From an uncultured Bacteroidota bacterium (GTDB lineage: Bacteria > Bacteroidota > Bacteroidia > Bacteroidales > GWA2-32-17), in assembly GCA_903872185.1 (NCBI GenBank), contig CAIQJL010000220.1, positions 1-32,762 of the forward strand: a stretch of 32,762 bases of DNA, written 5' to 3'. The position numbers were made by a program, and so were the translations under genes. How positions within the stretch are numbered: the stretch's first letter is position 1; each line of letters opens with the position of its first letter. Below, piece by piece: positions 353-14,979 of this stretch. The notes beneath the pieces are model-generated. The model was given only the letters and a program-made list of their open reading frames with translations, did no database searches and was not told the DNA's origin.

Positions 353-973
353 TTATATTTTTTTTGCTGTTAATAAGAACAGAGGATAGGCTTTCCCAAT
401 ATGTGGACCGTCTGCTTTTTTTATTTCATAACATGGTTTATGAAAAATTTCTACAAAACCGATTTTTATTAAAATTTTCGATAAATCCAACGGTCTAAAT
501 CCAAAATGACCCATAAAATCACTATCGTGAAATGTTCCATCTTCTTTATATAAATCAATAATAGCAAGAGTTCCTCCAGTATTTAACAGCGCATAGAATT
601 TGGAAAGTAAAAGATCAATTTCCATAACATGGTGCATTGCCATTTGAGTAAAAATAAAATCAAATGTTTTATTAGTATAATTATCCTTTTCCAAATCAAA
701 AAATGTTGGGATTAGATTAGTGATCTTTTCCCTATCAAGCTTTTCTTTAGCTACTCGTACCATTTCTACAGAACTATCCATTAGAACTATTTCAGAGAAT
801 AAATCCTTTAAAGCAAAACTTAATAAACCTGTTCCAGCACCAAAATCAAGCGCTTTAGAATTTTCCTTAAATTCAATAATATTTCTTAATTCCTTAGCAA
901 CCGCCTCAGTTCTTTTAACATGTATTTGGTTCATGTCCCAATCTTTTGCAGCTGTATCAAAAAAGTTTTCCAT
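353..973 (-). CDS. Class I SAM-dependent methyltransferase (copy 1)
   Basis: The 206-residue product is a soluble class I methyltransferase. Motif I is ALDFGAGTG at residues 41-49, the acidic residue expected to contact the SAM ribose is D66 in VLMDSS, and FDFIFTQMAMHH at about 104-115 is the post-motif strand seen in Methyltransf_11/25-type enzymes. The acceptor substrate is not evident from the sequence. The gene lies 13 bp downstream of the methionine gamma-lyase-like gene in an operon of redox and sulfur functions, so a small thiol or sulfide acceptor is possible but unproven. A paralogue of the same length, about two-thirds identical by eye, is encoded at 13517-14137 in the second DUF134 operon. 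Sharing of this gene by both operons suggests it is a core part of the system. Confidence 0.85.
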   Translation of the reverse strand: MENFFDTAAKDWDMNQIHVKRTEAVAKELRNIIEFKENSKALDFGAGTGLLSFALKDLFSEIVLMDSSVEMVRVAKEKLDREKITNLIPTFFDLEKDNYTNKTFDFIFTQMAMHHVMEIDLLLSKFYALLNTGGTLAIIDLYKEDGTFHDSDFMGHFGFRPLDLSKILIKIGFVEIFHKPCYEIKKADGPHIGKAYPLFLLTAKKI

Positions 974-986
974 TGTGTTATTTCAA

Positions 987-2168
987 TTATATTTTTTCTA
1001 AACCATGTTTTAAATCTTCAATAATATCTTTTGCATCTTCAATTCCAACAGCAAAACGAATTAAATCATCTGTAATTCCTGCTTTTTGTTTATCTTCTTT
1101 TGAAACTTTTGCATGTGTCATTGATGCTGGATGTTGAATTAAGGTTTCAATACCACCTAGCGAAACAGCTAGTAAAGCTAAATGAACATTATTCATTAAT
1201 ATTTTAGCTCCTTCAAAACCAGTTTTTAATCCAAAACTGATCATTGAACCATCTCCTTTCATTTGTTGCTTTCCCAATTCATATTGTGGATGGGATTTAA
1301 GTCCGGGAAATTTAACCCAGGCAACTTTAGGATGTTTCTCTAGAAACTCAGCAACTTTCATAGCATTTTCCTGTGCTCTATCAATACGAATTGATAAAGT
1401 TTTTAAGCCACGTAAAACCATATAAGCTTGATGTGGGTCCATATTACAACCCAAATTAATCATCATCGTTCTTAATTGAGTATATAAAGCTTTTTCTTTT
1501 GTTATTATTATACCTGCTATAATATCAGCATGACCATTTATAAATTTTGTCATTGAATGAAATACAATATCAGCTCCAAAATCCAATGGGTTTTGCAAAT
1601 AAGGACTGCAAAAAGTATTGTCAACAACTAATATAATTCCATGTTTATGAGCAATGTCAGCACAAGCTTTAAGATCTGTAATGTCCATTGTAGGATTCGC
1701 AGGAGTTTCAATGTATAGCATTTTTGTATTTGGACGAATAGCTTTTTCTATAGCATCAACATCAGTAGTATTAATATATGTTGATTGAAATCCAAATCTC
1801 ACAAATTGTTTTTCCATAACACCACGTGATGGTCCATAAATCGCATCTGTGCTAACAATATGATCACCTGAACTTAATAATGCAAGATAAATTGTTGTTG
1901 CTGCTGCCATTCCAGAGCTTACAGCAATTGCACCATACCCGTTTTCGAGTATTGCAATTTGTTTTTCTAATGCATTTATCGTTGGATTACCAATACGAGT
2001 ATAAATGTAGCCATCACTTTCACCAGCAAAACATTTTGCACCTTCTTCTGCACTTTTAAAAGAAAAAGTTGATGTTTGATAAATAGGAACTGTGGCGGAA
2101 CCGAATTGATCATCAATATCACCACCATGAATTAATTTGGTATTAAAACCAGCGTTTTCTGTATTCAT
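987..2168 (-). CDS. PLP-dependent Cys/Met metabolism enzyme, methionine gamma-lyase-like
   Basis: The 393-residue protein is a full-length Cys/Met-metabolism PLP enzyme (the MGL, cystathionine gamma-lyase and cystathionine gamma-synthase family). Visible residues are Y56-T57-R58 (phosphate contact from the neighbouring subunit), SSGMAA at 84-89, Y111 stacking on PLP, D183 in VVDN, and the Schiff-base lysine K208 in SMTKF. Methionine gamma-lyase would cleave methionine to methanethiol, ammonia and 2-oxobutyrate; related enzymes release H2S from cysteine or homocysteine. The cysteine that follows Tyr-Gly in well-studied methionine gamma-lyases is a proline here (Y111-G112-P113), so substrate preference cannot be fixed. 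The gene sits 6 bp after osmC and 13 bp before the methyltransferase, clearly one operon. The family call is firm; the exact reaction is less so. Confidence 0.85.
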   Translation of the reverse strand: MNTENAGFNTKLIHGGDIDDQFGSATVPIYQTSTFSFKSAEEGAKCFAGESDGYIYTRIGNPTINALEKQIAILENGYGAIAVSSGMAAATTIYLALLSSGDHIVSTDAIYGPSRGVMEKQFVRFGFQSTYINTTDVDAIEKAIRPNTKMLYIETPANPTMDITDLKACADIAHKHGIILVVDNTFCSPYLQNPLDFGADIVFHSMTKFINGHADIIAGIIITKEKALYTQLRTMMINLGCNMDPHQAYMVLRGLKTLSIRIDRAQENAMKVAEFLEKHPKVAWVKFPGLKSHPQYELGKQQMKGDGSMISFGLKTGFEGAKILMNNVHLALLAVSLGGIETLIQHPASMTHAKVSKEDKQKAGITDDLIRFAVGIEDAKDIIEDLKHGLEKI

Positions 2169-2174
2169 TATTAC

Positions 2175-2564
2175 TTATTTTAAAGATGTTATTATTTCAA
2201 ATTTAGGATTACTTGCAAGTGTTTTTTTTACTTTGCAAAATTGTGCTGCACTTATTACTGCCTCTTTATATTTTTCAGGAAAATCTGAAGGTAATTGAAT
2301 TTCTATTTTGAAATTTGTTGGCAAACCAGTTTGTTTATCATATTCAGCATGTTGAATAAGCTTAATGTTATCAGTTGAAATTTCTCGTTGATTGCAAAAT
2401 GATTTAACATTAATACCTGCACAAGTACCAATTGACGCTAAAAATAACTCATAAGGTGATGGAGCTGAATTTTCACCACCATCCTCCAATGCTTGATCAG
2501 TTCTTATAATATGACCATTAATATGGGCGGTTACTACTTTTCCGCCATCAAAAGTTATTTCCAT
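2175..2564 (-). CDS. OsmC/Ohr family protein (copy 1)
   Basis: The 129-residue protein has the OsmC-like fold signature. APSPYELFLASIGTCAG at 34-50 carries the first redox cysteine C48, and AAQFCKVKK near 106-114 carries the second, C110. OsmC/Ohr proteins reduce organic hydroperoxides through such a cysteine pair; many short OsmC-like members have unknown thiol substrates. C57, in SFCNQRE, is a third cysteine, also kept in the paralogue at 14178-14567. The two paralogues are about 84% identical by eye. Here the gene follows cydB, whereas in the second operon it directly follows the DUF134 gene, so it appears to be a core member with different insertions around it. A role in thiol or peroxide stress is inferred from family and neighbours. 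Confidence 0.88.
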   Translation of the reverse strand: MEITFDGGKVVTAHINGHIIRTDQALEDGGENSAPSPYELFLASIGTCAGINVKSFCNQREISTDNIKLIQHAEYDKQTGLPTNFKIEIQLPSDFPEKYKEAVISAAQFCKVKKTLASNPKFEIITSLK

Positions 2565-2601
2565 TTATTTTATTATTTGTTATTAAATATTTTGCTAATT
2601 A

Positions 2602-3774
2602 TTAATAAATATGTGTTTCATTATTTATTTCTTCAATGTCAATTTTTTTATTGTCAATAGATCGCCAAGCATACCATATATATGCTATAACAAAAGGAAC
2701 TAATAAAGAAACATAACTCATTACAGTTAATGTGTATTGACTTGAAGAACTATTCTCGATAGTTAATGAACTTTGCAAATCGAAAGTTGAAGGATAATAA
2801 GCTGTATTATTAAAACCTGCTATTAAAAGAAGAGAGAAAACTGTTAAGATTGTACCTATACCAGTTAGCCAAATTCCTTTTGTTCCACATTTTGTAAAAC
2901 AAGTAATAGGTCTTATAATACCAACTAAAACCATTAATATACCAAATAGAAATAGTATGCTAACAATTGGCATTGAAAGTAGGTTATGTAAGTATTTATA
3001 AGGCTCTATAAAAACTACTTTTGAAATTGGATTGACTGCAAATCCAGGTGAAAGTATTAACCAAATTGTAAAAATTAGAAAGAAAACAACAAATGGTATA
3101 GCATTATAAATTAATTGTTTTTTAACTCTTTCCATTATTTCAGTATTTTTAATACGATTCATAAAATAAAGCAAGGCTAAAACTCTTGACAAGAAGAAAA
3201 CTGCTATTCCTAAAGAAATATTTTGAAAATTTAATGCAGCTTCTAAACCATTTGCTGGCCCAGTCCATTCAGAGATAATGGGCATTTTACCACCTGTCAG
3301 TTTAGTTATATTCATTTTATCAATTAAAAACTCTGAACCAGTAAAGAAAGTAGCAACAGCAGTACCTATTAGCACAGTTCCTAACAATCCATTAATAAAA
3401 AGTAAAATCTCAAATGTTTTTTTGCCAAATAAATTATTTGGCTTTTTACGATATTCATATGATACAGCCTGAACCACGAAAGCAATTAAAATAAGTAACC
3501 AAACCCAATAGGCACCTCCAAAACTTGTAGAATAGAACAATGGGAATGAAGCAAAAAATGCACCACCAAAAGTTACAAGTGTAGTAAAAGTAAACTCCCA
3601 TTTTCTTCCTAACAAATTAACCAATAATGTACGCTCATCTTCAGATTTTCCAAGTGTGTAAATAAGAGTTTGTCCACCTTGAACAAACATTAGAAAAACT
3701 AGTATTGCACCTAAAAGTGAAATTATTATCCACCAGTATTGTTGCAATGTTATATAAGATAATGTTTCAAACAT
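2602..3774 (-). CDS. cydB: Cytochrome bd ubiquinol oxidase subunit II
   Basis: The 390-residue product is a polytopic membrane protein with about nine hydrophobic segments, and is the expected partner of CydA, which ends 32 bp upstream. Cytochrome bd transfers electrons from quinol to O2 without proton pumping and works at very low oxygen; in other bacteria it is known for tolerance to sulfide and cyanide. The first transmembrane segment has FVQGGQTL where the enterobacterial protein has a DGFDLG-type motif, a difference I associate with CydB of this phylum rather than damage. The start at 3774 gives a normal N-terminus. The gene belongs to the DUF134-led operon and, with cydA and the HdrC-like gene, is missing from the paralogous operon at 13098-14979. 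Confidence 0.92.
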   Translation of the reverse strand: MFETLSYITLQQYWWIIISLLGAILVFLMFVQGGQTLIYTLGKSEDERTLLVNLLGRKWEFTFTTLVTFGGAFFASFPLFYSTSFGGAYWVWLLILIAFVVQAVSYEYRKKPNNLFGKKTFEILLFINGLLGTVLIGTAVATFFTGSEFLIDKMNITKLTGGKMPIISEWTGPANGLEAALNFQNISLGIAVFFLSRVLALLYFMNRIKNTEIMERVKKQLIYNAIPFVVFFLIFTIWLILSPGFAVNPISKVVFIEPYKYLHNLLSMPIVSILFLFGILMVLVGIIRPITCFTKCGTKGIWLTGIGTILTVFSLLLIAGFNNTAYYPSTFDLQSSLTIENSSSSQYTLTVMSYVSLLVPFVIAYIWYAWRSIDNKKIDIEEINNETHIY

Positions 3775-3806
3775 ATTTTTAAAGTTTATATAATTGATAA
3801 ATTAGT

Positions 3807-5345
3807 TTAGTTTGCTGGACCTTTTTTAATTTGGGTTGTCATTATCTTAATTTCAGCAATTAACAAACCAGTAAAAATTATGAAAAAGATCCAAAATGTT
3901 AATTGCACAGAAGATGATTTTATTTGAGAAACAGCAGCAATTGTTGGCAATACATCCTGAATAACCCATGGTTGTCGTCCAACTTCTGCTACCACCCAAC
4001 CTAATTCTGATGCTATATAAGCCAATGGGATAGTCCATAAAGCAGTATATAAAACAATTCGTTTTTTCTCTACTTTATTTTTTAAGGTTAATATTAAAAT
4101 AACAATGAATAGAAGTATAAAATGAAAACCTAAACCAACCATTATTCTAAATGAATAAAATGTTACTGGCACATTAGGTATTAATTCATTTACATCTCTA
4201 TTAGCATAAAATCCGTATCCAAAATGAGGATAATTTTTCCTAAATTTTGAAAGTGATAATTGAATAAGACTATCATTACCTGCTTTTTTTGCATTTTTAT
4301 AATCGGCCAGGGAATTTATTACTACTTCACCTCTCTCACTTCGTTCTTTATAAGACAAAATATTATGTTCTTCATTTCCTTTAACTAAATCATGAATTCC
4401 TGGGACATAAGCATTAGGATCAAGAAATGCCATATAAGAGAGCATATTTGGTATTTCTATTTTAAACAGAAAATCTTGTTTTTTAGGGTCAGTTTCTGTT
4501 TTGTTTTTTTGTAAAAAACCTATTGCAGCTAATGGTGCATTTTGTTGACCAATGTAAAGATTTTCCATAGCAGCAAATTTCATGGGCTGATATTTTGCCA
4601 TATTACGAGCAGAACCATCACCTGTGAAAATGACTAATAATGAAGACACCAGACCAAAGATGGAAGCTACAATGATGCTTTTTTTAGCAAATAATTGTTC
4701 CCGATTTTTAAGTAAAAACCATGCACTTATTCCTATTACGAAAATTGCTGCTAACAAATAACCAGACAAAACGGTATGTGAAAATTTATTTAAAGCAACA
4801 GGAGAACCAATAACATCCCAAAAATTAACCATTTCATTACGTGCAGTATCAAGATTAAATTTCATTCCAGTTGGAAATTGCATCCATGCATTTGCTACTA
4901 AAATCCATAATGCTGAAAGATTCGCACCGATAGCAACTAACCAAGTAGAAAGTAAATGAAATTTTTTACTGACTTTATTCCATCCAAAAAACATAACTGC
5001 AATAAATGTACTTTCCAAGAAAAAAGCCATTATACCTTCAATTGCAAGTGGAGCACCAAAAATATCTCCAACAAACCACGAATAATTTGACCAATTAGTC
5101 CCAAATTCAAATTCCAAAATTATTCCTGTTGCAACACCTATTGCGAAATTAATACCAAATAGTGTCATCCAAAATTTAGTAATCCGTTTCCACTCAGGAT
5201 TTCCAGTTTTCACATATAATGATTCCATTAATGCAATTATGATAGAAAGCCCAAGAGTTAATGGTACAAATAGCCAATGGTACATTGCAGTGAGCGCAAA
5301 TTGAGCTCTCGACCAATCAACTAAAGAAAAATCTACATGTTCCAT
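3807..5345 (-). CDS. cydA: Cytochrome bd ubiquinol oxidase subunit I
   Basis: The 512-residue membrane protein is the haem-bearing, quinol-oxidising subunit of cytochrome bd. Haem ligands and channel residues can be placed by comparison with the E. coli protein: H23 in TAMYHWLF, E103 and E111 in IEGIMAFFLEST, H190 in KFSHTVLSG, R400 and M402 in FYSFRIMVG. The GRQPW element is at 456-460 in a GWVVAEVGRQPW motif. The Q-loop begins at YQPMKFAAMEN (about 252-262) and is long, containing a charged segment up to about 375. All catalytic residues are present, so it should be active. It lies 34 bp after the HdrC-like gene and 32 bp before cydB. Membership in a DUF134 operon rather than a stand-alone cydAB operon is the notable part. 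Confidence 0.95.
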   Translation of the reverse strand: MEHVDFSLVDWSRAQFALTAMYHWLFVPLTLGLSIIIALMESLYVKTGNPEWKRITKFWMTLFGINFAIGVATGIILEFEFGTNWSNYSWFVGDIFGAPLAIEGIMAFFLESTFIAVMFFGWNKVSKKFHLLSTWLVAIGANLSALWILVANAWMQFPTGMKFNLDTARNEMVNFWDVIGSPVALNKFSHTVLSGYLLAAIFVIGISAWFLLKNREQLFAKKSIIVASIFGLVSSLLVIFTGDGSARNMAKYQPMKFAAMENLYIGQQNAPLAAIGFLQKNKTETDPKKQDFLFKIEIPNMLSYMAFLDPNAYVPGIHDLVKGNEEHNILSYKERSERGEVVINSLADYKNAKKAGNDSLIQLSLSKFRKNYPHFGYGFYANRDVNELIPNVPVTFYSFRIMVGLGFHFILLFIVILILTLKNKVEKKRIVLYTALWTIPLAYIASELGWVVAEVGRQPWVIQDVLPTIAAVSQIKSSSVQLTFWIFFIIFTGLLIAEIKIMTTQIKKGPAN

Positions 5346-5379
5346 ATTATTTTAAATGTTATATAATTAATAATCATAT

Positions 5380-6096
5380 TTAATCGTTTAAAGAATGTTT
5401 CCCATTATTTGTAGTATAAACATGTTTGAAGTATTCACATGTATTTGTGTTGTCAAATTGCAAACCCAATTCTTTTGCTTTTTGTTCTGAATGTTTTTCT
5501 ATGTTATCGAAAAATTCTTTTCCACCTGATACCTCAAAAATACTTTTCAATTCTTCCAATGCTTCTTCAGGAATTTTACGCATTGCTCCATCTCCATTAC
5601 CTTTATAATTAGCACCACATCTCTCGTAAACATCTTTGGCATTTTTTCTAACCCATTCCCAAACCGGACCTTGTTCTGGATGCATTTCAGAAGTAATACG
5701 ATCAACATACATACAATAACCAGATTTTAAAATCTCATCTCCTACAGTTCTTTTAATGGCTAATGATTGACGACCTTTTTCGCTTTCAACAAAATAACCA
5801 AGTTGGTGTGATAAATGTCGTAATGCTTGAATTATAAAACCAGGTGTATTATTTCTTGGACATCTTGTTTTACATGATAAACACTCACCACAATACCAGA
5901 TTGTGTCACTTTTTAAAAGTGCTTCAATTTCATTATTATTTTTATTTTGAAGAGTAACTGCAATTAATCTGGGATCGTAATTATAAAACTCAGCAGCAGG
6001 GCAAATAGCTGTGCATGTACCACAATTTATGCAAGCATTTAATCCTTCAATAAAACGAACATCACTTTTTAATAAAGAATATAAATCTTCAGTCAT
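5380..6096 (-). CDS. HdrC-like 4Fe-4S dicluster protein
   Basis: The 238-residue soluble protein has two classic [4Fe-4S] motifs, C22-x2-C25-x2-C28-x3-C32-P and C69-x2-C72-x2-C75-x3-C79-P. This arrangement is that of heterodisulfide reductase subunit C and related electron-transfer proteins. The 150-residue C-terminal part has no transmembrane segment. No HdrB or HdrA gene is nearby, so it is an orphan. Its position just before cydAB suggests it may carry electrons to or from the quinone pool or to a thiol/disulfide partner, but this is inference. It starts 1 bp after the DUF134 stop codon (TAA-A-ATG), so translation is probably coupled. The second operon shows the same 1-bp junction but with osmC in this place. 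Confidence 0.82.
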   Translation of the reverse strand: MTEDLYSLLKSDVRFIEGLNACINCGTCTAICPAAEFYNYDPRLIAVTLQNKNNNEIEALLKSDTIWYCGECLSCKTRCPRNNTPGFIIQALRHLSHQLGYFVESEKGRQSLAIKRTVGDEILKSGYCMYVDRITSEMHPEQGPVWEWVRKNAKDVYERCGANYKGNGDGAMRKIPEEALEELKSIFEVSGGKEFFDNIEKHSEQKAKELGLQFDNTNTCEYFKHVYTTNNGKHSLND

Positions 6097-6097
6097 T

Positions 6098-6508
6098 TTA
6101 CTTTTGATTTAAATTAATTAATTCCTCTTTACCAAACCGATTACAATCCGAACATTTTATATGATTTTCAAGTCCTTCGATTAATTTGAAACACTTTTTA
6201 CATTTATACCAATCTTTACCAAATTCAAAATTGCCTCCTTCAATAATAATTGACTTCCCTTCAACAAATGCTTTTGCAATTTTTATTAAAGCACTATTAT
6301 ATATTCGAGTAAGTGTTGGACGCGACACTTCCATAAGATCAGCAGCTTCGTCTTGAGGAAGTAAATCATAATTCACCAGCTTTATAGCTTCATATTCATC
6401 ATATTGCATTAATATATGTTCAGTTTCACAGAGTGCAATTCCAAAAGGCTTAAAGCCCTGCATCTTTGGAGGATTACATATTTTTCTATTTTTCTGAGGT
6501 CTTGCCAT
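6098..6508 (-). CDS. DUF134 (UPF0251) DNA-binding protein, likely regulator (copy 1)
   Basis: The 136-residue protein starts MARPQKNRK and carries the DUF134 N-terminal block (CNPPKMQGFKPFG, 11-23). A sigma-70 region 4-like helix-turn-helix follows at about 52-82 (DEAADLMEVSRPTLTRIY). A C-terminal zinc ribbon is marked by C103-x2-C106 and C119-x2-C122; C11 and C27 could add metal or redox sensing. It is the first gene of the operon, and its promoter region contains the palindrome TGAAC-N4-GTTCA, which is also found before the paralogue at 14569-14979 (about 87% identical by eye). Autoregulation and control of the operon and the divergent thioesterase are inferred from this placement. The family is poorly characterised, so the signal sensed is not known. 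Confidence 0.85.
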   Translation of the reverse strand: MARPQKNRKICNPPKMQGFKPFGIALCETEHILMQYDEYEAIKLVNYDLLPQDEAADLMEVSRPTLTRIYNSALIKIAKAFVEGKSIIIEGGNFEFGKDWYKCKKCFKLIEGLENHIKCSDCNRFGKEELINLNQK

Positions 6509-6651: not shown

Positions 6652-7062
6652 ATGGAATTAACAGAACGTATAAAAAAATCAGAGACAAGTCAATTTAAAG
6701 TTATTTTCCCTTGTACATTAAATGATCATGAAACTTTATTTGGCGGAACTGCCATGAAATGGATGGATGAAGTTGCTTATATAACAGCAACACGATTTAC
6801 TCGTATGAAAATGGTAACAGTATCATCTGAAAAAGTTCAATTTCTATTACCAATAAAATCAGGCACTATTGCGGAAATAATTGGCAAAGTTGTTAAAACA
6901 AAAAATGTAAAAATTGAAATACATGTTGATATTTATATTGAAGATATGTATTCTAACTACCGACAAAAAGCTGTAGATGCACTATTTACTTTTGCTGCTA
7001 TTGATAATGAAAACAAACCCATTCCATTTAATTTGAAAGAAGAATCACTACAATTAGTATAA
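6652..7062 (+). CDS. Hotdog-fold acyl-CoA thioesterase
   Basis: The 136-residue protein is a single-hotdog acyl-CoA thioesterase of the YciA/BACH type. The diagnostic stretch is N24-D25-H26 ... T28-LFGG (to residue 32), then WMDE at 37-40, where the asparagine and the Asp on the central helix form the active site. Such enzymes hydrolyse acyl-CoA to free acid and CoA in the cytosol as hexamers. It is transcribed divergently from the DUF134 operon and shares a control region with two palindromic operators, so it probably belongs to the same regulon. The start at 6652 is the only one that keeps the family N-terminus. Which acyl-CoA it prefers cannot be read from the sequence. Confidence 0.87.
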   Translation: MELTERIKKSETSQFKVIFPCTLNDHETLFGGTAMKWMDEVAYITATRFTRMKMVTVSSEKVQFLLPIKSGTIAEIIGKVVKTKNVKIEIHVDIYIEDMYSNYRQKAVDALFTFAAIDNENKPIPFNLKEESLQLV

Positions 7063-7109
7063 TTTCCTTTTTACACTAACATTTTTTTATTTTATTTTTT
7101 TTCATTTTT

Positions 7110-7309
7110 CACTTACAATCTTACAATATTCTTCTAGAACCTTTGTTTAGTATATGTTTTAACATTGTAAGATTAAAAAAATAAAATATTACAATGTTAC
7201 AATATATTGTAATATTGTAACTTCTTGTAAGATCAAAAAAGATAATCTTACAATGCTATAATGCAATAATAGCAAGTATAACAAAGCATCATTGTAACAT
7301 TGTAACTTG
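7110..7309. repeat. Foldback repeat module A (TTACAAT words)
   Basis: This gene-free 200 bp is built from TTACAAT and its complement ATTGTAA. Its ends are near-complementary: TTACAATCTTACAAT at 7113-7127 against ATTGTAACATTGTAA at 7291-7305, with one mismatch. Inside are three more inverted repeats: 7118-7127 with 7164-7173 (10 bp); 7189-7204 with 7205-7220 (16 bp with one G-T, no loop); and 7225-7233 with 7245-7253 (9 bp). No ORF or tandem spacer pattern is present, so it is not a CRISPR. It may be a MITE-like element, a recombination or attachment structure, or a structured RNA. Confidence 0.6.
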
Positions 7310-7392
7310 ATTTTGTTTTATATTAAATTTCTCATTAAAAATTTAGATATAATTTTTAATAATCTTTTAAATTAATTTATTTTTTCAATTTT

Positions 7393-7601
7393 CTCTTACA
7401 AGCTTACATGAAACCTCTATAATAGCTTTAAACATTAAGAATATTTCATGTAAGATGTTATATAAACTAAATATTCAACTTACATGAATGCCCTTTTTCA
7501 TGTAACCTTGTAACTTCTTGTAACTAAAAAAAAAATAATCTTACATGACTACAACATAGATTTAGAAAGGGATTTAAACAATTCATGTAGGATTGTAAGT
7601 G
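7393..7601. repeat. Foldback repeat module B (TTACATG words), homologous to module A
   Basis: This module has the same layout as module A about 285 bp upstream but is written mostly with TTACATG/CATGTAA. Its ends pair over 20 bp with three mismatches (7393-7412 against 7582-7601). Internal hairpins are CTTACATGAAA 7403-7413 with 7444-7454 (11 bp) and TTACATGAA 7480-7488 with 7497-7505 (9 bp). The strings TAACTTCTTGTAA and GATTTTG occur at equivalent places in both modules, as does a T-rich left flank, which shows common origin. The two modules are separated by about 80 bp of AT-rich DNA (7310-7392) in which I see nothing. Confidence 0.6.
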
Positions 7602-7699
7602 GATTTTGTGATCTGTTTTTTTTGCAAATAACAATTAAAATAAATAGATAAAAAGTAAGTTTATAATATCATATGTTTGCGTAATAAAAAAATATTTTT

Positions 7700-7729
7700 T
7701 TTGGTAAAATAAATCTTTTGTTACCTTTG
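7700..7729 (+). promoter_or_regulatory. Strong promoter for a small RNA
   Basis: TTTG at 7700-7703 is followed after 18 bp by TACCTTTG at 7722-7729, a near-ideal Bacteroidota promoter. No credible plus-strand ORF begins within the next 400 bp, but an intrinsic terminator lies about 200 bp downstream. Confidence 0.65.
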
Positions 7730-7735
7730 TAAATT

Positions 7736-7936
7736 AAAGCAAACAGGTTCTTTTAAGTGTAATAATAAGTTGTCTTTCAGCAATTGGATTTCTGATTGGA
7801 CTAACTTTAATTTTTTATAAAAACAACTGATTTTAAATATTATGGAGAGTAATGTAAAACAACCTTCCTCTCCGCCAGATAGAGAATGAATATCAAGGAA
7901 CAATCCAGTAAAATCAGCGTTTTACTGGATTTTTTG
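7736..7936 (+). ncRNA. Putative ~200 nt small RNA, possibly 6S-like
   Basis: The unit is defined by a consensus promoter ending at 7729 and an intrinsic terminator at 7902-7935, giving a transcript of about 200 nt. A closing stem GTTCTTT (7747-7753) with AAGGAAC (7895-7901, one G-U) abuts the terminator, so the body folds back on itself. Inside, GGAGAG (7844-7849) pairs with CTCTCC (7868-7873), leaving AU-rich, mostly unpaired flanks. Length, an independent strong promoter, and a long imperfect rod fit 6S RNA, the RNA polymerase-binding regulator, but I cannot align it to a known model, so that identity is a guess. It is too short for tmRNA or RNase P RNA and lacks SRP RNA tetraloop features. 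A minus-strand 60-codon frame over it (7721-7903) has no supporting features. Confidence 0.55.
7902..7935 (+). terminator. Intrinsic terminator of the small RNA
   Basis: A 12-bp perfect stem, AATCCAGTAAAA (7902-7913) with TTTTACTGGATT (7920-7931), encloses the loop TCAGCG and runs into a T tract at 7930-7935. It is one of the two clearest intrinsic terminators in the window. Confidence 0.85.
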
Positions 7937-7940
7937 TTTA

Positions 7941-8105
7941 AACTAAACTGTAAAAATTTAACAAAATAAAGCTCCAATTTTGATTTTAAACAATTGAAAA
8001 CCGTATTTATTATTTTAGTTACAAACTAATATTATTTCAAAATCCATTTAGTGACAAAAATCCACTATTGGGAGATATATTCAAGCTATTGAGTGATTCA
8101 TTTTT
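7941..8105. other. AT-rich spacer with no recognised feature
   Basis: Between the small-RNA terminator and the receptor promoter I see no ORF, strong hairpin or repeat. Short AT palindromes such as GTTTAAAC (7936-7943) are not distinctive in DNA of this composition. Confidence 0.5.
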
Positions 8106-8133
8106 TTTGAGCTTAGCAGTTGGCTTACTTTTG
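8106..8133 (+). promoter_or_regulatory. Promoter of the TonB receptor / LytS-LytTR operon
   Basis: TACTTTTG at 8126-8133 matches the -7 consensus and lies 31 bp before the ATG. A TTTG at 8106-8109 is 16 bp upstream, slightly closer than usual, so the -33 assignment is uncertain. Confidence 0.5.
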
Positions 8134-8164
8134 AAATACTATTCACAATTAGATAAAATATTTC

Positions 8165-10582
8165 ATGAAAAAGACTTTTAAAAAATCAAATCAGCATAAC
8201 AGATTCTTTAATTATAACTTTATATCGCTAAGAATACTTATTTTACTTTGTTTTACATTGACAGCTAATTTATTATTTGCTCAAAGCAACAAACAAAATA
8301 TACGAGGTGTTGTTATTGATAAACTTTCGCAAACAACACTTCCTGGTGCATCGATTCAAATAGCAAATAAAAGTGAAACAAAAGGGACTATTACAGATGA
8401 AAAAGGAAATTATGTACTTGCTGATATTTCTCCAGATAGATATGAAATAAAAATCTCTTTTATTGGATATAAAGATGTAATTGTGCCTAATGTTATTGTT
8501 GTTTCAGGAAAAGAAACAATATTGGATATTACAATGGAAGAAAATGTTACAAGCTTAAATGAAGTTGTAGTAACTGCAAATAGTAAAGACAAGACAATAA
8601 ATAACTTAGCAACAATTAGTGCACGCACATTTTCTACCGAGGAAGTGAACCGCTATTCTGGTGGGCGAAGTGACGCAGCTAGATTAGTTGCTAACTTTGC
8701 CGGAGTTAGTGCACCAGATGATTCAAGAAATGATATTGTAATACGAGGTAATTCGCCAGTAGGTGTTTTGTGGCGTATTAATGGAATGAACGTAACAAAT
8801 CCTAACCATTTTTCAACAACGGGTACTACTGGTGGCGCTGTAAGTGCTGTAAATACGAACCTTCTTAAAAGTTCTGATTTTTTTACTTCAGCTTTTCCAG
8901 CAGAGTATGGAAATGCAATTGCTGGTGTTTTCGATTTGGGTTTCAGAAACGGGAACTCACAAAAAAGAGAAACCACATTACAGGTTGGTGTAATAACAGG
9001 AATAGAGGCAACAACAGAAGGGCCAATTAGCAAAGCAAACAATTCTTCATATTTAGTAGGTTATCGCTATGCTCTAGCTGGCGTAGCACAGGCTCTTGGC
9101 GTTAACATTGGTACAACAGCAACACCTTCTTATCAGGATTTATCATTCAATGTAAACAGTGGAAATGGCAAATTGGGAAAATTTACTTTGTTTGGTATTC
9201 TTGCAACAAGCAGTATCAGTATTTCTGGTGGTAATTCAGGCTCTATGTATGGTGGCAGAGATGGCCATGATTTGAGTAGTAAAATTGGCATAATTGGTTT
9301 AAATCATTTTAAACAGTTAAACAAAAAATCATATTTCAGTTCAACAATAGGCTTAAACTATTCGCAAACAGATCAGACTGACTATAGCTTTGACCGTTTA
9401 ACAAATACAAATTTTACTCGTGAAGAAAATAATGTTGCTAAAACAGGATATAATTTTGCAACTAGTTTTAATTCAAAAATAAATGCCAGGCTTTTCGTAA
9501 AAGTTGGGGTTCAGGACGAGCTTATAGGGCTTAGTTTATATTACAGAATGAAAGAAAGAATTATTGATGACTGGAAACAGATTTGGGATTATAATAGTTA
9601 TACAAACCTTGCACAAGCTTATATACACGCGAAATATAGTTTTAATGAAAAACTCACTTTAAATGCTGGTGTACATTCACAAATATTTTTGTTAAATAAT
9701 TCGTTATCTGTTGAACCACGTTTAGGGTTAAAATATGACTTAAATAATAAAAGCAGTTTTAATTTCGGATATGGACTTCATTCGCAGATGCAACCTATAA
9801 ATGTATATTTTCTGCAAACACAAAATGTAGATAGTACTTATAGTTATAACAATAAGAATCTGGACTTCACTAAAAGTCATCATTTTGTCTTAGGCTATGA
9901 TTTGAAACCATTTACCGATTGGCGTTTAAAAGCTGAAGTATATTATCAATATCTATTTGATGTACCAATAAATACATTTTCGAGCAGCTATTCAATGCTT
10001 AATACTGGTGCAGGTTTTAAAACAGACCTGGAAGACAGTCTTACTAATGGAGGTAAAGGCCAAAATTATGGTGTAGAATTAACTATTGAAAAGTTTTTCA
10101 ATAAAGGATATTATGTATTGTTTACCTCTTCACTTTATAGTTCAAAATATATTGCAAGTGATGGTATAGAAAGAAATACTGCATTTAATGGAAGATATGT
10201 GTTTAATGTTCTGGGAGGTAAAGAATGGAAAGTTGGCAGCGATAAAAGAAATAAGATATCTGCTGATTTAAAATTAACTAATGCAGGCGGAAGAGCTTAT
10301 ACTCCTATAGATTTAACGGCATCAGAGGCAATTGGTCGCGGTGTTTATTCCACTGATCTTTTTTCTGATTATTATGACTCTTATTTTAGAATGGACTTTA
10401 AAATTGGTTTTACTCTTAATGGTCGTAGTAAGAAAATATCACAATCAGTTTCTTTAGATTTACAAAATGTAACAAATAATAAAAACGTTTTTTCACAAGA
10501 GTATGATGATAGATCGAGATCAATAAAAACGACCTACCAACTCGGATTTTTTCCTAATTTTATTTATAAATTGCAGTTTTAG
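8165..10582 (+). CDS. TonB-dependent receptor with carboxypeptidase-regulatory-like domain
   Basis: The 805-residue outer-membrane protein has a basic N-terminus and a signal peptide ending near residue 40 (LLFAQ). A CarboxypepD_reg-like beta-sandwich follows at about 45-130 (IRGVVIDKLSQ to the NEVVVTA linker). A plug domain at about 135-260 contains VIRGNSPVGVLWRINGMNV. The remainder is a beta-barrel of alternating aromatic strands ending in IYKLQF, a typical C-terminal insertion signal. It is shorter than SusC proteins and no SusD partner follows, so a polysaccharide role is unlikely; the cargo is unknown. The gene is followed after 22 bp by a LytS-type kinase and a LytTR regulator. This linkage suggests the pair may control or respond to this transporter. 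Confidence 0.88.
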   Translation: MKKTFKKSNQHNRFFNYNFISLRILILLCFTLTANLLFAQSNKQNIRGVVIDKLSQTTLPGASIQIANKSETKGTITDEKGNYVLADISPDRYEIKISFIGYKDVIVPNVIVVSGKETILDITMEENVTSLNEVVVTANSKDKTINNLATISARTFSTEEVNRYSGGRSDAARLVANFAGVSAPDDSRNDIVIRGNSPVGVLWRINGMNVTNPNHFSTTGTTGGAVSAVNTNLLKSSDFFTSAFPAEYGNAIAGVFDLGFRNGNSQKRETTLQVGVITGIEATTEGPISKANNSSYLVGYRYALAGVAQALGVNIGTTATPSYQDLSFNVNSGNGKLGKFTLFGILATSSISISGGNSGSMYGGRDGHDLSSKIGIIGLNHFKQLNKKSYFSSTIGLNYSQTDQTDYSFDRLTNTNFTREENNVAKTGYNFATSFNSKINARLFVKVGVQDELIGLSLYYRMKERIIDDWKQIWDYNSYTNLAQAYIHAKYSFNEKLTLNAGVHSQIFLLNNSLSVEPRLGLKYDLNNKSSFNFGYGLHSQMQPINVYFLQTQNVDSTYSYNNKNLDFTKSHHFVLGYDLKPFTDWRLKAEVYYQYLFDVPINTFSSSYSMLNTGAGFKTDLEDSLTNGGKGQNYGVELTIEKFFNKGYYVLFTSSLYSSKYIASDGIERNTAFNGRYVFNVLGGKEWKVGSDKRNKISADLKLTNAGGRAYTPIDLTASEAIGRGVYSTDLFSDYYDSYFRMDFKIGFTLNGRSKKISQSVSLDLQNVTNNKNVFSQEYDDRSRSIKTTYQLGFFPNFIYKLQF

Positions 10583-13097: not shown

Positions 13098-13484
13098 TCA
13101 ATGTTTACAAACATGACCACCTTCTCCATTATGATGCTCATGTTGCATACAACTTTCATTACTATCACTAATTTTTCCAGTTATATATTGTTCAATTATT
13201 TCATGCGCATCACCAGAACAACCTCTTATTACCTGTATCCCAACACTATTAAGAACATTTATTGCACCACCACCTATTCCACCAGCTAACATTATGGTAA
13301 CACCTTGCTCAAATAACACAGATGCAATATTCGACTTACTACCACAACCCTTTTCTGATTCAATTGTTTGCACCTCTAAAATTATATTGTTATCAGATAC
13401 CCTATACACATTAAAAAAATCACAATGGCCAAAATGTGCATCAATTTGATTACTTCTGGTAACCGGAACTGCTATTTTTTTCAT
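13098..13484 (-). CDS. NifX/NifB-type (DiNase family) iron-molybdenum cofactor-binding protein
   Basis: The 128-residue protein has the dinitrogenase iron-molybdenum cofactor domain: MKKIAVPVTRSNQIDAHFGHCDFF at the N-terminus, LAGGIGGGAINVL at 67-79, and the conserved CSGDA at 89-93. Family members bind Fe-S or FeMo-type clusters, often outside nitrogen fixation. The tail from 111 is a Cys/His-rich metal-binding candidate (CMQHEHH, then HVCKH). I start at 13484 because MKKIAVPV is the family N-terminus; a longer frame to 13532 adds a lysine-rich leader and overlaps the methyltransferase. No nif genes are nearby. The gene ends the second DUF134 operon; DUF134 and DiNase domains are often linked in anaerobes, which fits. 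Confidence 0.83.
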   Translation of the reverse strand: MKKIAVPVTRSNQIDAHFGHCDFFNVYRVSDNNIILEVQTIESEKGCGSKSNIASVLFEQGVTIMLAGGIGGGAINVLNSVGIQVIRGCSGDAHEIIEQYITGKISDSNESCMQHEHHNGEGGHVCKH

Positions 13485-13516
13485 TTTTATTATTTCTTTT
13501 TTAATTTGTTTACATT

Positions 13517-14137
13517 TTATAGTTTTTTGCAACTAAGTAAAAAAAGCGGATAAACTTTTCCTTTGTCAGGTCCATCAACCTTTGTTATTTCAAAGCATTG
13601 CTTGAAATTAACGTCAACGAAACCAATTTTACTAAGTATTACTTCCAAGTCTTCGGGATTAAATCCAGAATGTCCAGTAAAATCTCTATCGTGAAAAGTA
13701 CCATTCTCTTTATACAAATCAACTATTGCTAGTTGTCCTCCTTTGTTTAACAATTTGTAAAATTTTGAAAATATCTCAAGAATATTTGATACATGATGTA
13801 AAGTCATTTGGGTAAAAATAAAATCGAAAGACTTTAGTTCATAATTCTCTTTTTCAAGATTAAAGAAAACTGGAAATAAATTTTGAATATCTTCTTTCTC
13901 AAGTTTTTCAGTAGTAACACGAACCATTTCTAAGGAACTATCCATAAGAGTAATTTCAGAGAATAAATCCTTAATCGCAAAACTTAATAAACCTGTACCT
14001 GCTCCATATTCGAGGGCTTTTGAATTTTGTTGAAATACTAGTATTTCACGAAATTCTTTTGCTATCGCTTCCGCTCTTTTAATATGTATTTGATTTTTAT
14101 CCCAATCTTTTGCAGCCGAATCAAAAAAGTTTTCCAT
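13517..14137 (-). CDS. Class I SAM-dependent methyltransferase (copy 2)
   Basis: This 206-residue paralogue of the enzyme at 353-973 starts MENFFDSAAKDWD and keeps motif I as ALEYGAGTG and the acidic MDSS loop. The family-specific YKENGTFHDRDFTGH stretch and the DGPDKGKVYPLFLL end are also shared. By eye about two-thirds of positions match copy 1, clearly less than for the DUF134 and OsmC pairs, so this enzyme has diverged most. It could act on a different acceptor. It lies 40 bp after osmC copy 2 and 32 bp before the NifX-like gene. The acceptor is unknown. Confidence 0.85.
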   Translation of the reverse strand: MENFFDSAAKDWDKNQIHIKRAEAIAKEFREILVFQQNSKALEYGAGTGLLSFAIKDLFSEITLMDSSLEMVRVTTEKLEKEDIQNLFPVFFNLEKENYELKSFDFIFTQMTLHHVSNILEIFSKFYKLLNKGGQLAIVDLYKENGTFHDRDFTGHSGFNPEDLEVILSKIGFVDVNFKQCFEITKVDGPDKGKVYPLFLLSCKKL

Positions 14138-14177
14138 TTTATTATATTTTAATTATTTTTTTTTAAATTCTGTTTTA

Positions 14178-14567
14178 CTATTTTAATGTTGTTGTTACTT
14201 CAAATACTGGTTGACTAGCTATTGTTTTTTTTACTTTACAATATTGTGCTGCATTTATTACAGCATCCTTATACTTATCAGGAAAATCATATGGCAATTG
14301 AATTTCTATTTTGAACTTTGTTGGCAAACCTGTTTGATTATCATAATCGGCATGTTGAATAAGCGTAATGTTATCAGTTGGAATTTCTCGCTGATCACAA
14401 AATGATTTAACATTTATTCCAGCACAAGTGCCAATTGAAGCCAAGAATAATTCATAAGGAGAAGGGGCAGAATTTTCACCACCATCTTCTACTGCCTGAT
14501 CTGTTCTAATAACATGACCACGGATATGAGCACTTACAACTTTTCCACCATCAAATGTTATTTCCAT
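14178..14567 (-). CDS. OsmC/Ohr family protein (copy 2)
   Basis: The 129-residue protein is about 84% identical by eye to the OsmC-like protein at 2175-2564. It has the same cysteines (C48 in GTCAG, C57 in SFCDQRE, C110 in QYCKVKK). Most exchanges are conservative or on the surface. It starts 1 bp after the DUF134 stop codon, so translation is probably coupled. In operon 1 the corresponding position is taken by the HdrC-like gene and osmC comes three genes later, which shows that a block was gained or lost between DUF134 and osmC. Confidence 0.88.
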   Translation of the reverse strand: MEITFDGGKVVSAHIRGHVIRTDQAVEDGGENSAPSPYELFLASIGTCAGINVKSFCDQREIPTDNITLIQHADYDNQTGLPTKFKIEIQLPYDFPDKYKDAVINAAQYCKVKKTIASQPVFEVTTTLK

Positions 14568-14568
14568 A

Positions 14569-14979
14569 TTATTTTTGATTTAAATTTATTAATTCATCTT
14601 TTCCAAAATGAGTACATCCGTAACACTTTACATGATTCTCAAGTCCCTCAATTAATCGGAAACAATTTTTACATTTATACCAATCTTTATCAAACTCAAA
14701 ATTTCCTCCTTCAATAATTATTGACTTACCCTCAACAAATGCTTTGGCAATTTTTCTTAATGCATTATTATAAATTCGCGTTAGTGTTGGCCTCGAGACT
14801 TCCATTAGATCAGCAGCAGCATCTTGTGATAGCAAATCATAATTAATTAATTTAATAGCTTCGCATTCATCATATTGCATTAAAATATGTTCTGTTTCGC
14901 AAAACGCAATTCCAAAAGGCTTAAAACCCTGCATTTTAGGTGGATTACAAACCTTTCTACTTTTTTGAGGTCGTGCCAT
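14569..14979 (-). CDS. DUF134 (UPF0251) DNA-binding protein, likely regulator (copy 2)
   Basis: The 136-residue protein is about 87% identical by eye to the one at 6098-6508. The helix-turn-helix core AADLMEVSRPTLTRIYN is identical, which predicts the same DNA target. The zinc-ribbon cysteines are kept (C103, C106, C119, C122), as are C11 and C27. A new cysteine appears at position 39 (Tyr in copy 1). Differences cluster in the zinc-ribbon knuckle (SDCNR against YGCTH), so the sensing end may have drifted while the DNA-binding end has not. It leads operon 2, with the shared palindrome 48 bp upstream of its start. Confidence 0.85.
   Translation of the reverse strand: MARPQKSRKVCNPPKMQGFKPFGIAFCETEHILMQYDECEAIKLINYDLLSQDAAADLMEVSRPTLTRIYNNALRKIAKAFVEGKSIIIEGGNFEFDKDWYKCKNCFRLIEGLENHVKCYGCTHFGKDELINLNQK

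What the first reader, a model, noticed from the sequence alone, without database searches (positions are those of the whole stretch)
7110..7601. Two homologous foldback modules whose repeat word changes in concert (TTACAAT against TTACATG)
Modules A and B share layout, flanks and some strings, yet the inverted repeats in A are spelled with ATTGTAA and most of those in B with CATGTAA. Both members of each hairpin have changed together, so pairing is kept while sequence changes. Each module also has near-complementary ends (about 15-20 bp). This points to selection for structure, or to a copying mechanism that homogenises repeats within a module. It matches no standard element I know, and there is no ORF inside.
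Basis: seen in the sequence. Interest (0 to 1): 0.66.

Follow-up and report, generated by a model that had tools for sequence, protein, structure and literature searches.

The report
Two orphan replication origins of mobile DNA
The two foldback modules look like replication start sites of a little-described family of integrating mobile elements in Bacteroidota, left at the end of an inserted island without the replication gene that normally sits beside them, and their repeated word appears to change together with an amino acid in the protein that should read it.

Summary
Module A carries 10 exact TTACAAT words; module B carries 5 TTACATG and 3 TTACAAG; both share one layout. In a same-genus genome three homologous arrays lie directly 3' of a BT4734/PriCT_2/VapE replicase (AEP primase, SF3 helicase, C-terminal winged helix). 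Of 72 such replicase loci (not all independent) 28 have a strong word array on the 3' side, against 0 of 63 downstream and 1 of 58 upstream controls. The word differs between elements (TTACAAT, TTACATG, TTACTAC, TTACCAC, TTACCC, TGACTACA, TTACCTA...) while spacing is kept. The word follows the replicase's winged helix: arginine in the wing goes with CTAC words (17 of 18; 6 of 7 independent contrasts, 1 tie; blind test 9 of 11). The concerted change is best read as initiator-iteron co-evolution, not hairpin compensation. The arrangement matches SaPI rep-ori and pRN1; binding and origin activity are inferred. The window pair is orphaned: no replicase was found in the window, and one of apparently different specificity in the genome. 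It lies about 250-770 bp inside the end of an island in tRNA-Ser: a 13-nt half-site at 7863, with intact tRNA-Ser plus integrase on another contig.

The parts
7075..7108 (.). A+T-rich tract (91% A+T) on the far side of array A; putative DNA-unwinding element (inferred)
   Evidence: similar tracts follow the arrays in L032, L033, L034
7104..7320 (-). Array A: orphan iteron array (putative replication origin), word TTACAAT (10 exact + 1 TTACAAG); strand is that of the absent replicase gene
   Evidence: 84% identical to the array 3' of the replicase in G004:C161 (L032/L061)
7309..7335 (-). About 27 nt resembling the last codons of the replicase gene (weak trace of a lost rep 3' end beside array A)
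   Evidence: DNA match runs past the rep stop in L032; alignment; no significant tblastn hit
7388..7610 (-). Array B: orphan iteron array, 5 TTACATG, 3 TTACAAG, 1 TTACAAT
   Evidence: related to the array 3' of the replicase in G004:C82 (L034/L055)
7601..7625 (-). Short stretch resembling the replicase 3' end beside array B (weaker than in A)
   Evidence: alignment, by eye
7863..7875 (+). CCTTCCTCTCCGC: 3' end of tRNA-Ser(GGA), read as the attachment half-site at the right end of the integrated island
   Evidence: exact match to the tRNA-Ser 3' ends in G004:C194 (L167) and G000:C50 (L177); only match in the window with up to 2 mismatches, 0.14 expected
8037..8189 (.). Start of host DNA collinear with G004:C194 (88%; the TonB gene follows at 93%)

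Best explanation
Modules A and B are iteron arrays, most likely replication origins, of a Bacteroidota family of integrating mobile elements whose replicase joins a BT4734-type AEP primase, PriCT_2, a VapE/SF3 helicase and a C-terminal winged helix. In related elements the array often lies directly 3' of the replicase gene; the winged helix would bind the repeated word, and the helicase would load and open the adjacent A+T-rich DNA. The word diverges together with the winged helix, so the copies in an array change in concert while spacing is kept. In the window the replicase genes are gone and two arrays of different word remain in tandem near the end of an island integrated at the 3' end of tRNA-Ser. 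Shown by computation: homology and layout, position beside the replicase, word/wing association, orphan status in this assembly, tRNA-Ser half-site. Inferred: binding by the winged helix, origin activity, loss of the replicase genes by deletion.
For: Three same-genus arrays lie directly 3' of the replicase. 28 of 72 replicase loci have a strong array against 0 of 63 downstream controls, 1 of 58 upstream and 0 of 72 shuffle maxima (2 of the 28, L058 and L105, were searched at displaced offsets chosen; one search lists the 28). The 11 new loci with a prediction all show an array, 7 with score 30 or more and 4 with 17-24. 22 of the 24 arrays printed have a forward-to-inverted step of 41-47. Word similarity follows the C-terminal domain given the helicase core: partial rank correlation 0.25, reached by 0 of 500 permutations. 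Wing R and CTAC over 60 loci: 17 R&CTAC, 1 R only, 1 CTAC only, 41 neither; of 7 independent contrasts 6 agree and 1 ties. Blind predictions: 9 of 11 right. Three arginine-wing loci without an array near the stop have CTAC arrays at +845, +2541 and +3208 (L070, L060, L068; 4, 3 and 4 exact words), L059 none within 4 kb. Residues 604-681 of the model fold as a winged helix (RFX5 Z 8.2; RFX-DBD 1dp7 Z 6.7), and the best overall match is PriRep1 with dsDNA, 7pds. SaPI origins lie just downstream of rep and are read by the Rep C-terminal domain (PMC7581432, passages); the pRN1 origin lies 3' of an AEP-SF3-winged-helix replicase (PMC4234260, passages). tRNA-Ser half-site and integrase.
Against: No replication or binding assay. 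The strong-array count is 28 of 72, not all; some loci (e.g. L044, L046, L059, L103) show none. Word similarity also correlates with the helicase core given the C-terminus (0.22). The blind test missed L144 and L152, and the finer class predicted for L156 was wrong; L155 counts as right only because I read its word by eye (8 of 11 by the program's seed). Loci are related, so only the 7 contrasts are near-independent (6 if L155 is not overridden). The rep trace beside A is about 27 nt, beside B weaker. The assembly is a draft of 407 contigs, so a cognate replicase may be unassembled; the middle of the island between C50 and the window is not seen. The helicase part of the model has low confidence (pTM 0.40).
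Confidence: 0.78

Rival explanations
1. The arrays are replicase- or regulator-binding operator or partition (centromere) sites of the elements, not origins.
For: Iteron arrays can also serve copy control or partition (recalled). A second, different array type sits upstream of the replicase operon in many of these elements, so arrays need not have one function.
Against: Position 3' of the replicase, A+T-rich flank, and SaPI/pRN1 precedent. The word follows the replicase's own C-terminal domain, which argues for replicase binding rather than a separate partition protein.
Confidence: 0.13
2. Selected nucleic-acid hairpins (RNA or single-stranded DNA) with compensatory changes.
For: DNA folding z -4.6 and -3.1; outer-side complementarity beyond the word is raised (0.47-0.65 against 0.29); pRN1-type replicases are proposed to use a stem-loop origin.
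Against: Loop-side complementarity is near the composition level from the second base past the word; head-to-tail doublets share the word; arrays can lie up to 3.2 kb from the replicase, against a 3' UTR element; no Rfam match in the window.
Confidence: 0.06
3. MITE- or REP-like dispersed transposable repeat.
For: Several copies in a sister genome; inverted ends.
Against: No further array in the own genome by three searches (weak matches on C266 and C323 are A+T-rich or coding DNA without arrays). Elsewhere arrays sit beside one gene and differ in word between elements. Target-site duplications were not looked for systematically.
Confidence: 0.03

Closest known systems
SaPI rep-ori (staphylococcal pathogenicity islands; SCCmec Cch2 is similar)
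   Same: Integrating element; self-loading helicase whose C-terminal domain recognises an origin of short repeats directly downstream of the helicase gene; primase fused or separate (passages of PMC7581432). Best PDB match of our replicase is 7pds, 'PriRep1 with dsDNA', molecule 'Similar to D. nodosus vapE'; that this is a SaPI helicase is recalled.
   Different: Bacteroidota hosts, BT4734-type primase, own words and an 11-12-site layout; phage dependence unknown.
pRN1-type plasmids (ORF904)
   Same: AEP primase, SF3 helicase and C-terminal winged helix; origin 3' of the gene and still working when moved (passages of PMC4234260).
   Different: The pRN1 origin is one 100-bp stem-loop without iterons; archaeal.
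Satellite P4 alpha protein with ori and crr
   Same: Primase-helicase initiator with a C-terminal DNA-binding domain and repeated sites (mostly recalled; short comparison in a passage of PMC4234260).
   Different: TOPRIM-type primase; different repeats (recalled).
NBU-type Bacteroides integrating elements
   Same: Tyrosine integrase at a tRNA 3' end with a short common core (recalled).
   Different: Origin arrays of this kind are not known to me for NBUs; not tested.

Membership tests
SaPI-type rep-ori module (functional class) | Array of short repeats directly 3' of a self-loading replicase gene | tested here: met
   Met by relatives of the family, not by the orphan pair itself, which has no replicase beside it
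SaPI-type rep-ori module (functional class) | Replicase C-terminal domain recognises the repeats | tested here: inconclusive
   Co-variation of word and wing residue; no binding assay
SaPI-type rep-ori module (functional class) | Replicates when the replicase is supplied | not testable with these tools
   Needs experiment
Staphylococcal pathogenicity islands / PICI (lineage membership) | Helper-phage induction and packaging genes | not tested
   Not searched for systematically; no structural-gene hit among the 20 proteins scanned against PHROGs
tRNA-integrated mobile island (window) | Intact tRNA plus integrase at one end, tRNA 3' half-site at the other, tRNA present at the same site in a relative | tested here: met
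   G000:C50 tRNA-Ser and integrase, window 7863-7875 half-site, G004:C194 tRNA-Ser; that both ends belong to one island is inferred across a contig gap
Rfam-described structured RNA | Match to a family at gathering score | tested here: not met
   0 matches in the window
MITE/REP repeat | Multiple dispersed copies in the genome | tested here: not met
   No further array found in the own genome

The most novel reading that the evidence does not exclude
The tRNA-Ser island is a replicase-less passenger that carries two origins of different specificity so that it can be replicated in trans by either of two replicase types circulating in its genus (both words occur, with replicase, in the sister genome G004): a satellite of satellites. 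Words kept intact in A while spacers changed, two words side by side, and no cognate replicase found in the genome are consistent with this, but also with recent loss of the replicase genes. More generally, the family would offer a natural, readable code between winged-helix wing residues and origin words.
Probability: 0.15. Interest if true: 0.8.

Novelty: new variant of a known kind. Interest (0 to 1): 0.62.

Why it matters
It turns an odd repeat into a testable replicon: a Bacteroidota family of integrating elements with a self-encoded primase-helicase and a matching putative origin, in places next to defence-type genes (AbiE-like genes near L033's array, by reading; restriction genes near L058's). 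The word/winged-helix association gives a handle on how initiators and origins change specificity together, and hence on incompatibility between elements. The orphan pair raises the question whether replicase-less islands borrow or titrate the replicases of others.

Tried and rejected
Own-genome search for more copies: no further array. Searches hit only the window; one search adds a 59-nt A+T-rich match on C266, and one match on C323 (3 matches of the reversed control pattern); neither place holds an array. Other relatives: one search lists matches in 16 of 60 genomes; apart from the own genome and G004 these are weak (E 1e-6 to 9e-4), mostly to the A+T-rich stretch between the modules, and were not studied. 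Phage DNA search: no match. Viral contigs protein scans: no relative. Plasmid and phage protein searches gave only relatives under 60% identity (19 and 181 records); their flanks were not examined. Viral contigs word pattern: 13 stretches, 11 of them versions of one phage intergenic region with 5 TTACAAT and no replicase hit; unrelated. tblastn of the replicase C-terminus against window 7050-8170: nothing significant, so the rep remnant rests on a short DNA alignment. Direct repeats around the C82 element: none convincing. Copies of the tRNA 3' 10-mer as half-sites: found in L099 only, 1 of 4 loci tried (L068, L059, L099, own C65). A shared 12-mer at both island ends is about what chance gives and was dropped. 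tRNA in the window: none. Papers: keyword searches for this family's origin or for Bacteroidetes satellites listed nothing that by title or abstract describes it; (PriRep1) found none; I read only passages of PMC7581432, PMC7145576, PMC4234260 and PMC5862659, the last naming the BT4734 family in passing. This covers the held open-access library only.

Rows dropped before counts: of 80 loci, 4 run off (L066, L111, L125, L127), L056 had too short a flank, and L039, L041, L045 are duplicates, leaving 72; these still include near-identical pairs (e.g. L122/L123, L079/L080). Four of the 72 (L058, L078, L092, L105) were scored at displaced offsets. One search uses 60 loci: L064 left out (replicase broken before the C-terminus); L091 (arginine wing, CTGACTAC) left out with score 19.7; L120, L126 and L059 (arginine at or near the wing position, no array called) are not in the table. 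Words for L036, L060, L062, L068, L070 and L155 were set by me. For L155 the program's seed was GTAAGATG and I read CATCTTACTACA; without that the table is 16 R&CTAC and 2 R only. Of 17 loci, L154 is a duplicate of L105 and 5 had no prediction (L142, L143, L149, L153, L157).

Full report
Check of the observation. A (7104-7320) has 10 exact TTACAAT words on both strands plus one TTACAAG; B (7388-7610) has 5 TTACATG, 3 TTACAAG and 1 TTACAAT. TTACANNNTTACA occurs 6 times in the window, all in the modules, against 0.27 expected, and the density scan found no other such array in the window. Both fold better as DNA than all 200 shuffles, as inverted words must.

Relatives. Among 60 genomes searched (own genome and relatives), 16 have some match, but only the own genome and one same-genus genome (G004) have strong ones: in G004 two relatives of A (84% and 78%) and one of B; the others are weak matches, mostly to A+T-rich DNA between the modules. 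In all three G004 places the array begins within 0 to about 15 bases of the stop codon of a replicase: 685 aa in L033, 682 aa in L034, cut by the contig end in L032. It has BT4734-like N, PriCT_2 and VapE-like domains. Neighbours in these loci include a tyrosine integrase and an RteC-like protein (L034) and an HTH_17 protein (L033). Contigs of G004 match those of MAG Loclat_bin-05662 in length and identity, so it is most likely that genome.

Generality. From 74 named loci and 6 earlier ones I took the DNA 3' of each replicase. A de novo word finder gave a score of 30 or more in 28 of 72 usable loci, against 0 of 63 stretches 1.2 kb further on, 1 of 58 upstream stretches and 0 of 72 shuffle maxima; at a cut-off of 20 it is 45 of 72 against 3 of 63, 2 of 58 and 1 of 72. 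Four of the 72 were scored at displaced offsets because one search had shown the array there; two of them (L058, L105) are among the 28. Some loci are near-identical, so these counts are not independent. Words differ: TTACAAT, TTACATG, TTACTAC, TTACCAC, TTACCC(C), TTTCCCC, TGACTACA, TTATATC, TTACTCG, TTACCTA/T and others. In one search, 22 of 24 arrays have a forward-to-inverted step of 41-47, and many repeat the order 8, 43, about 24, 10, 8; A has the same layout as L061.

What the word follows. Among 45 loci, word similarity correlates with C-terminal identity after controlling for the helicase core (partial 0.25; 0 of 500 permutations reach it); it also correlates with the core given the C-terminus (0.22). 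One residue stood out: four positions after the conserved R/Q/K of G[FY]x[RQK] in the wing. Arginine there goes with CTAC words. I wrote predictions for 11 new loci before reading their flanks: 9 were right on CTAC or not; L144 (R, but CTTACCTA) and L152 (K, but CTTACTAC) were wrong; L156 was right on 'not CTAC' but wrong on the finer class; L155 counts as right by my reading of its array, not by the program's seed. Three arginine-wing loci that had seemed to lack arrays have TTACTAC arrays 0.8-3.2 kb further on; L059 has none within 4 kb. Over 60 loci: 17 R&CTAC, 1 R only, 1 CTAC only, 41 neither. On a helicase-core tree, 7 independent contrasts give 6 agreeing, 1 tie and 0 opposed (sign test 0.016).

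Structure. The AlphaFold2 model (mean pLDDT 71, pTM 0.40; helicase core poor) has a C-terminal winged helix at 604-681 whose closest solved folds include RFX5 and the RFX DNA-binding domain (Z 8.2 and 6.7) and Fur; the best overall match is 7pds, PriRep1 with dsDNA (sequence E 2.4e-10). RFX domains read DNA with the wing (recalled), which would suit a specificity residue there. Z values of 7-8 can reflect a common fold, so this shows fold, not function.

How it likely works. SaPI origins are repeats directly downstream of rep, read by the Rep C-terminal domain (PMC7581432, passages). In pRN1 the origin lies 3' of an AEP-SF3-winged-helix replicase and works when moved (PMC4234260, passages). 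By analogy the replicase here would bind its words, load and open the A+T-rich flank (91% A+T beside A). Divergence of the winged helix would force all words of an array to change, which gives the 'concerted' pattern. The pairing idea is weaker: loop-side complementarity is 0.52 at the first base past the word and about 0.35 next, against 0.29 by composition, though the outer side stays at 0.47-0.65.

The window pair. No replicase is detectable near it, and the own-genome search found one homologue, on C65, with an arginine wing and a weak TTACTAC-type array. So neither A nor B has an evident cognate replicase in this draft assembly. The DNA alignment of A runs about 27 nt into the replicase 3' end of L032, suggesting the gene was once there. 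Along A's own branch 0 of 77 word columns and 11 of 116 spacer columns changed (p 0.003): the words were under constraint for most of that branch, which fits recent orphaning or continued use.

Where it sits. In G004 the DNA collinear with window 8037 onward (88-93%) is preceded by an asparaginase-like gene (named by reading) and an intact tRNA-Ser(GGA). The window keeps 13 nt of that tRNA's 3' end at 7863-7875. In the window's own genome contig C50 carries the same gene, an intact tRNA-Ser and, about 240 bp on, a tyrosine integrase, 52% identical to those of replicase loci L058 and L074. So A and B lie about 250-770 bp inside the right end of an island in tRNA-Ser; that C50 and the window are two ends of one island is inferred. 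No half-site was found between A and B, which speaks against simple tandem insertion of two elements. L099 looks like a complete relative: half-site, integrase, helicase, array, separate primase genes, tRNA-Arg, 11.8 kb; in three other loci tried no half-site was found.

Verdict. Real, and largely explained: a new Bacteroidota variant of the known replicase-plus-downstream-iteron-origin kind, here as an orphan pair. Searches of the held papers listed no description of it. Binding and origin activity remain to be shown.

Noticed in passing
L058, L060, L062, L059, L073, L076, L083, L056, L068, L070, L074: about 600-800 nt upstream of the replicase start (e.g. L058:7300-7700): A second, different array on both strands upstream of the replicase operon (before the HTH_17 gene in L058), its word also varying by element (AGTCCCC, AGTCTTC, AGTTCCC, AAAGTC-like). 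Possibly the operator of another regulator.
   Followed up: partly
L099:120-11941: Apparently complete 11.8-kb tRNA-Arg element with helicase and AEP primase as separate genes and the array between them; carries a YafQ-type toxin gene.
   Followed up: partly
window 353-6508 and 13098-14979: Two similar gene sets (methyltransferase, OsmC-like, DUF134) on either side of the island end; relatives of the left set lie on separate contigs in same-genus genomes.
   Followed up: no
L032:3870-6570 and L033:2-1613: A protein with a predicted N-terminal membrane segment (by reading) and no family match, and a transglutaminase-like protein, conserved between two elements; function unknown.
   Followed up: no
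L167 (G004:C194) 7427-8974: A 515-aa gene lies between the upstream flank and the TonB gene in G004 but not in the window, so the locus has changed more than once.
   Followed up: no
L128-L140 (viral contigs): A phage family (11 of 13 stretches) with 5 TTACAAT words in one intergenic region and no replicase of this kind found.
   Followed up: no
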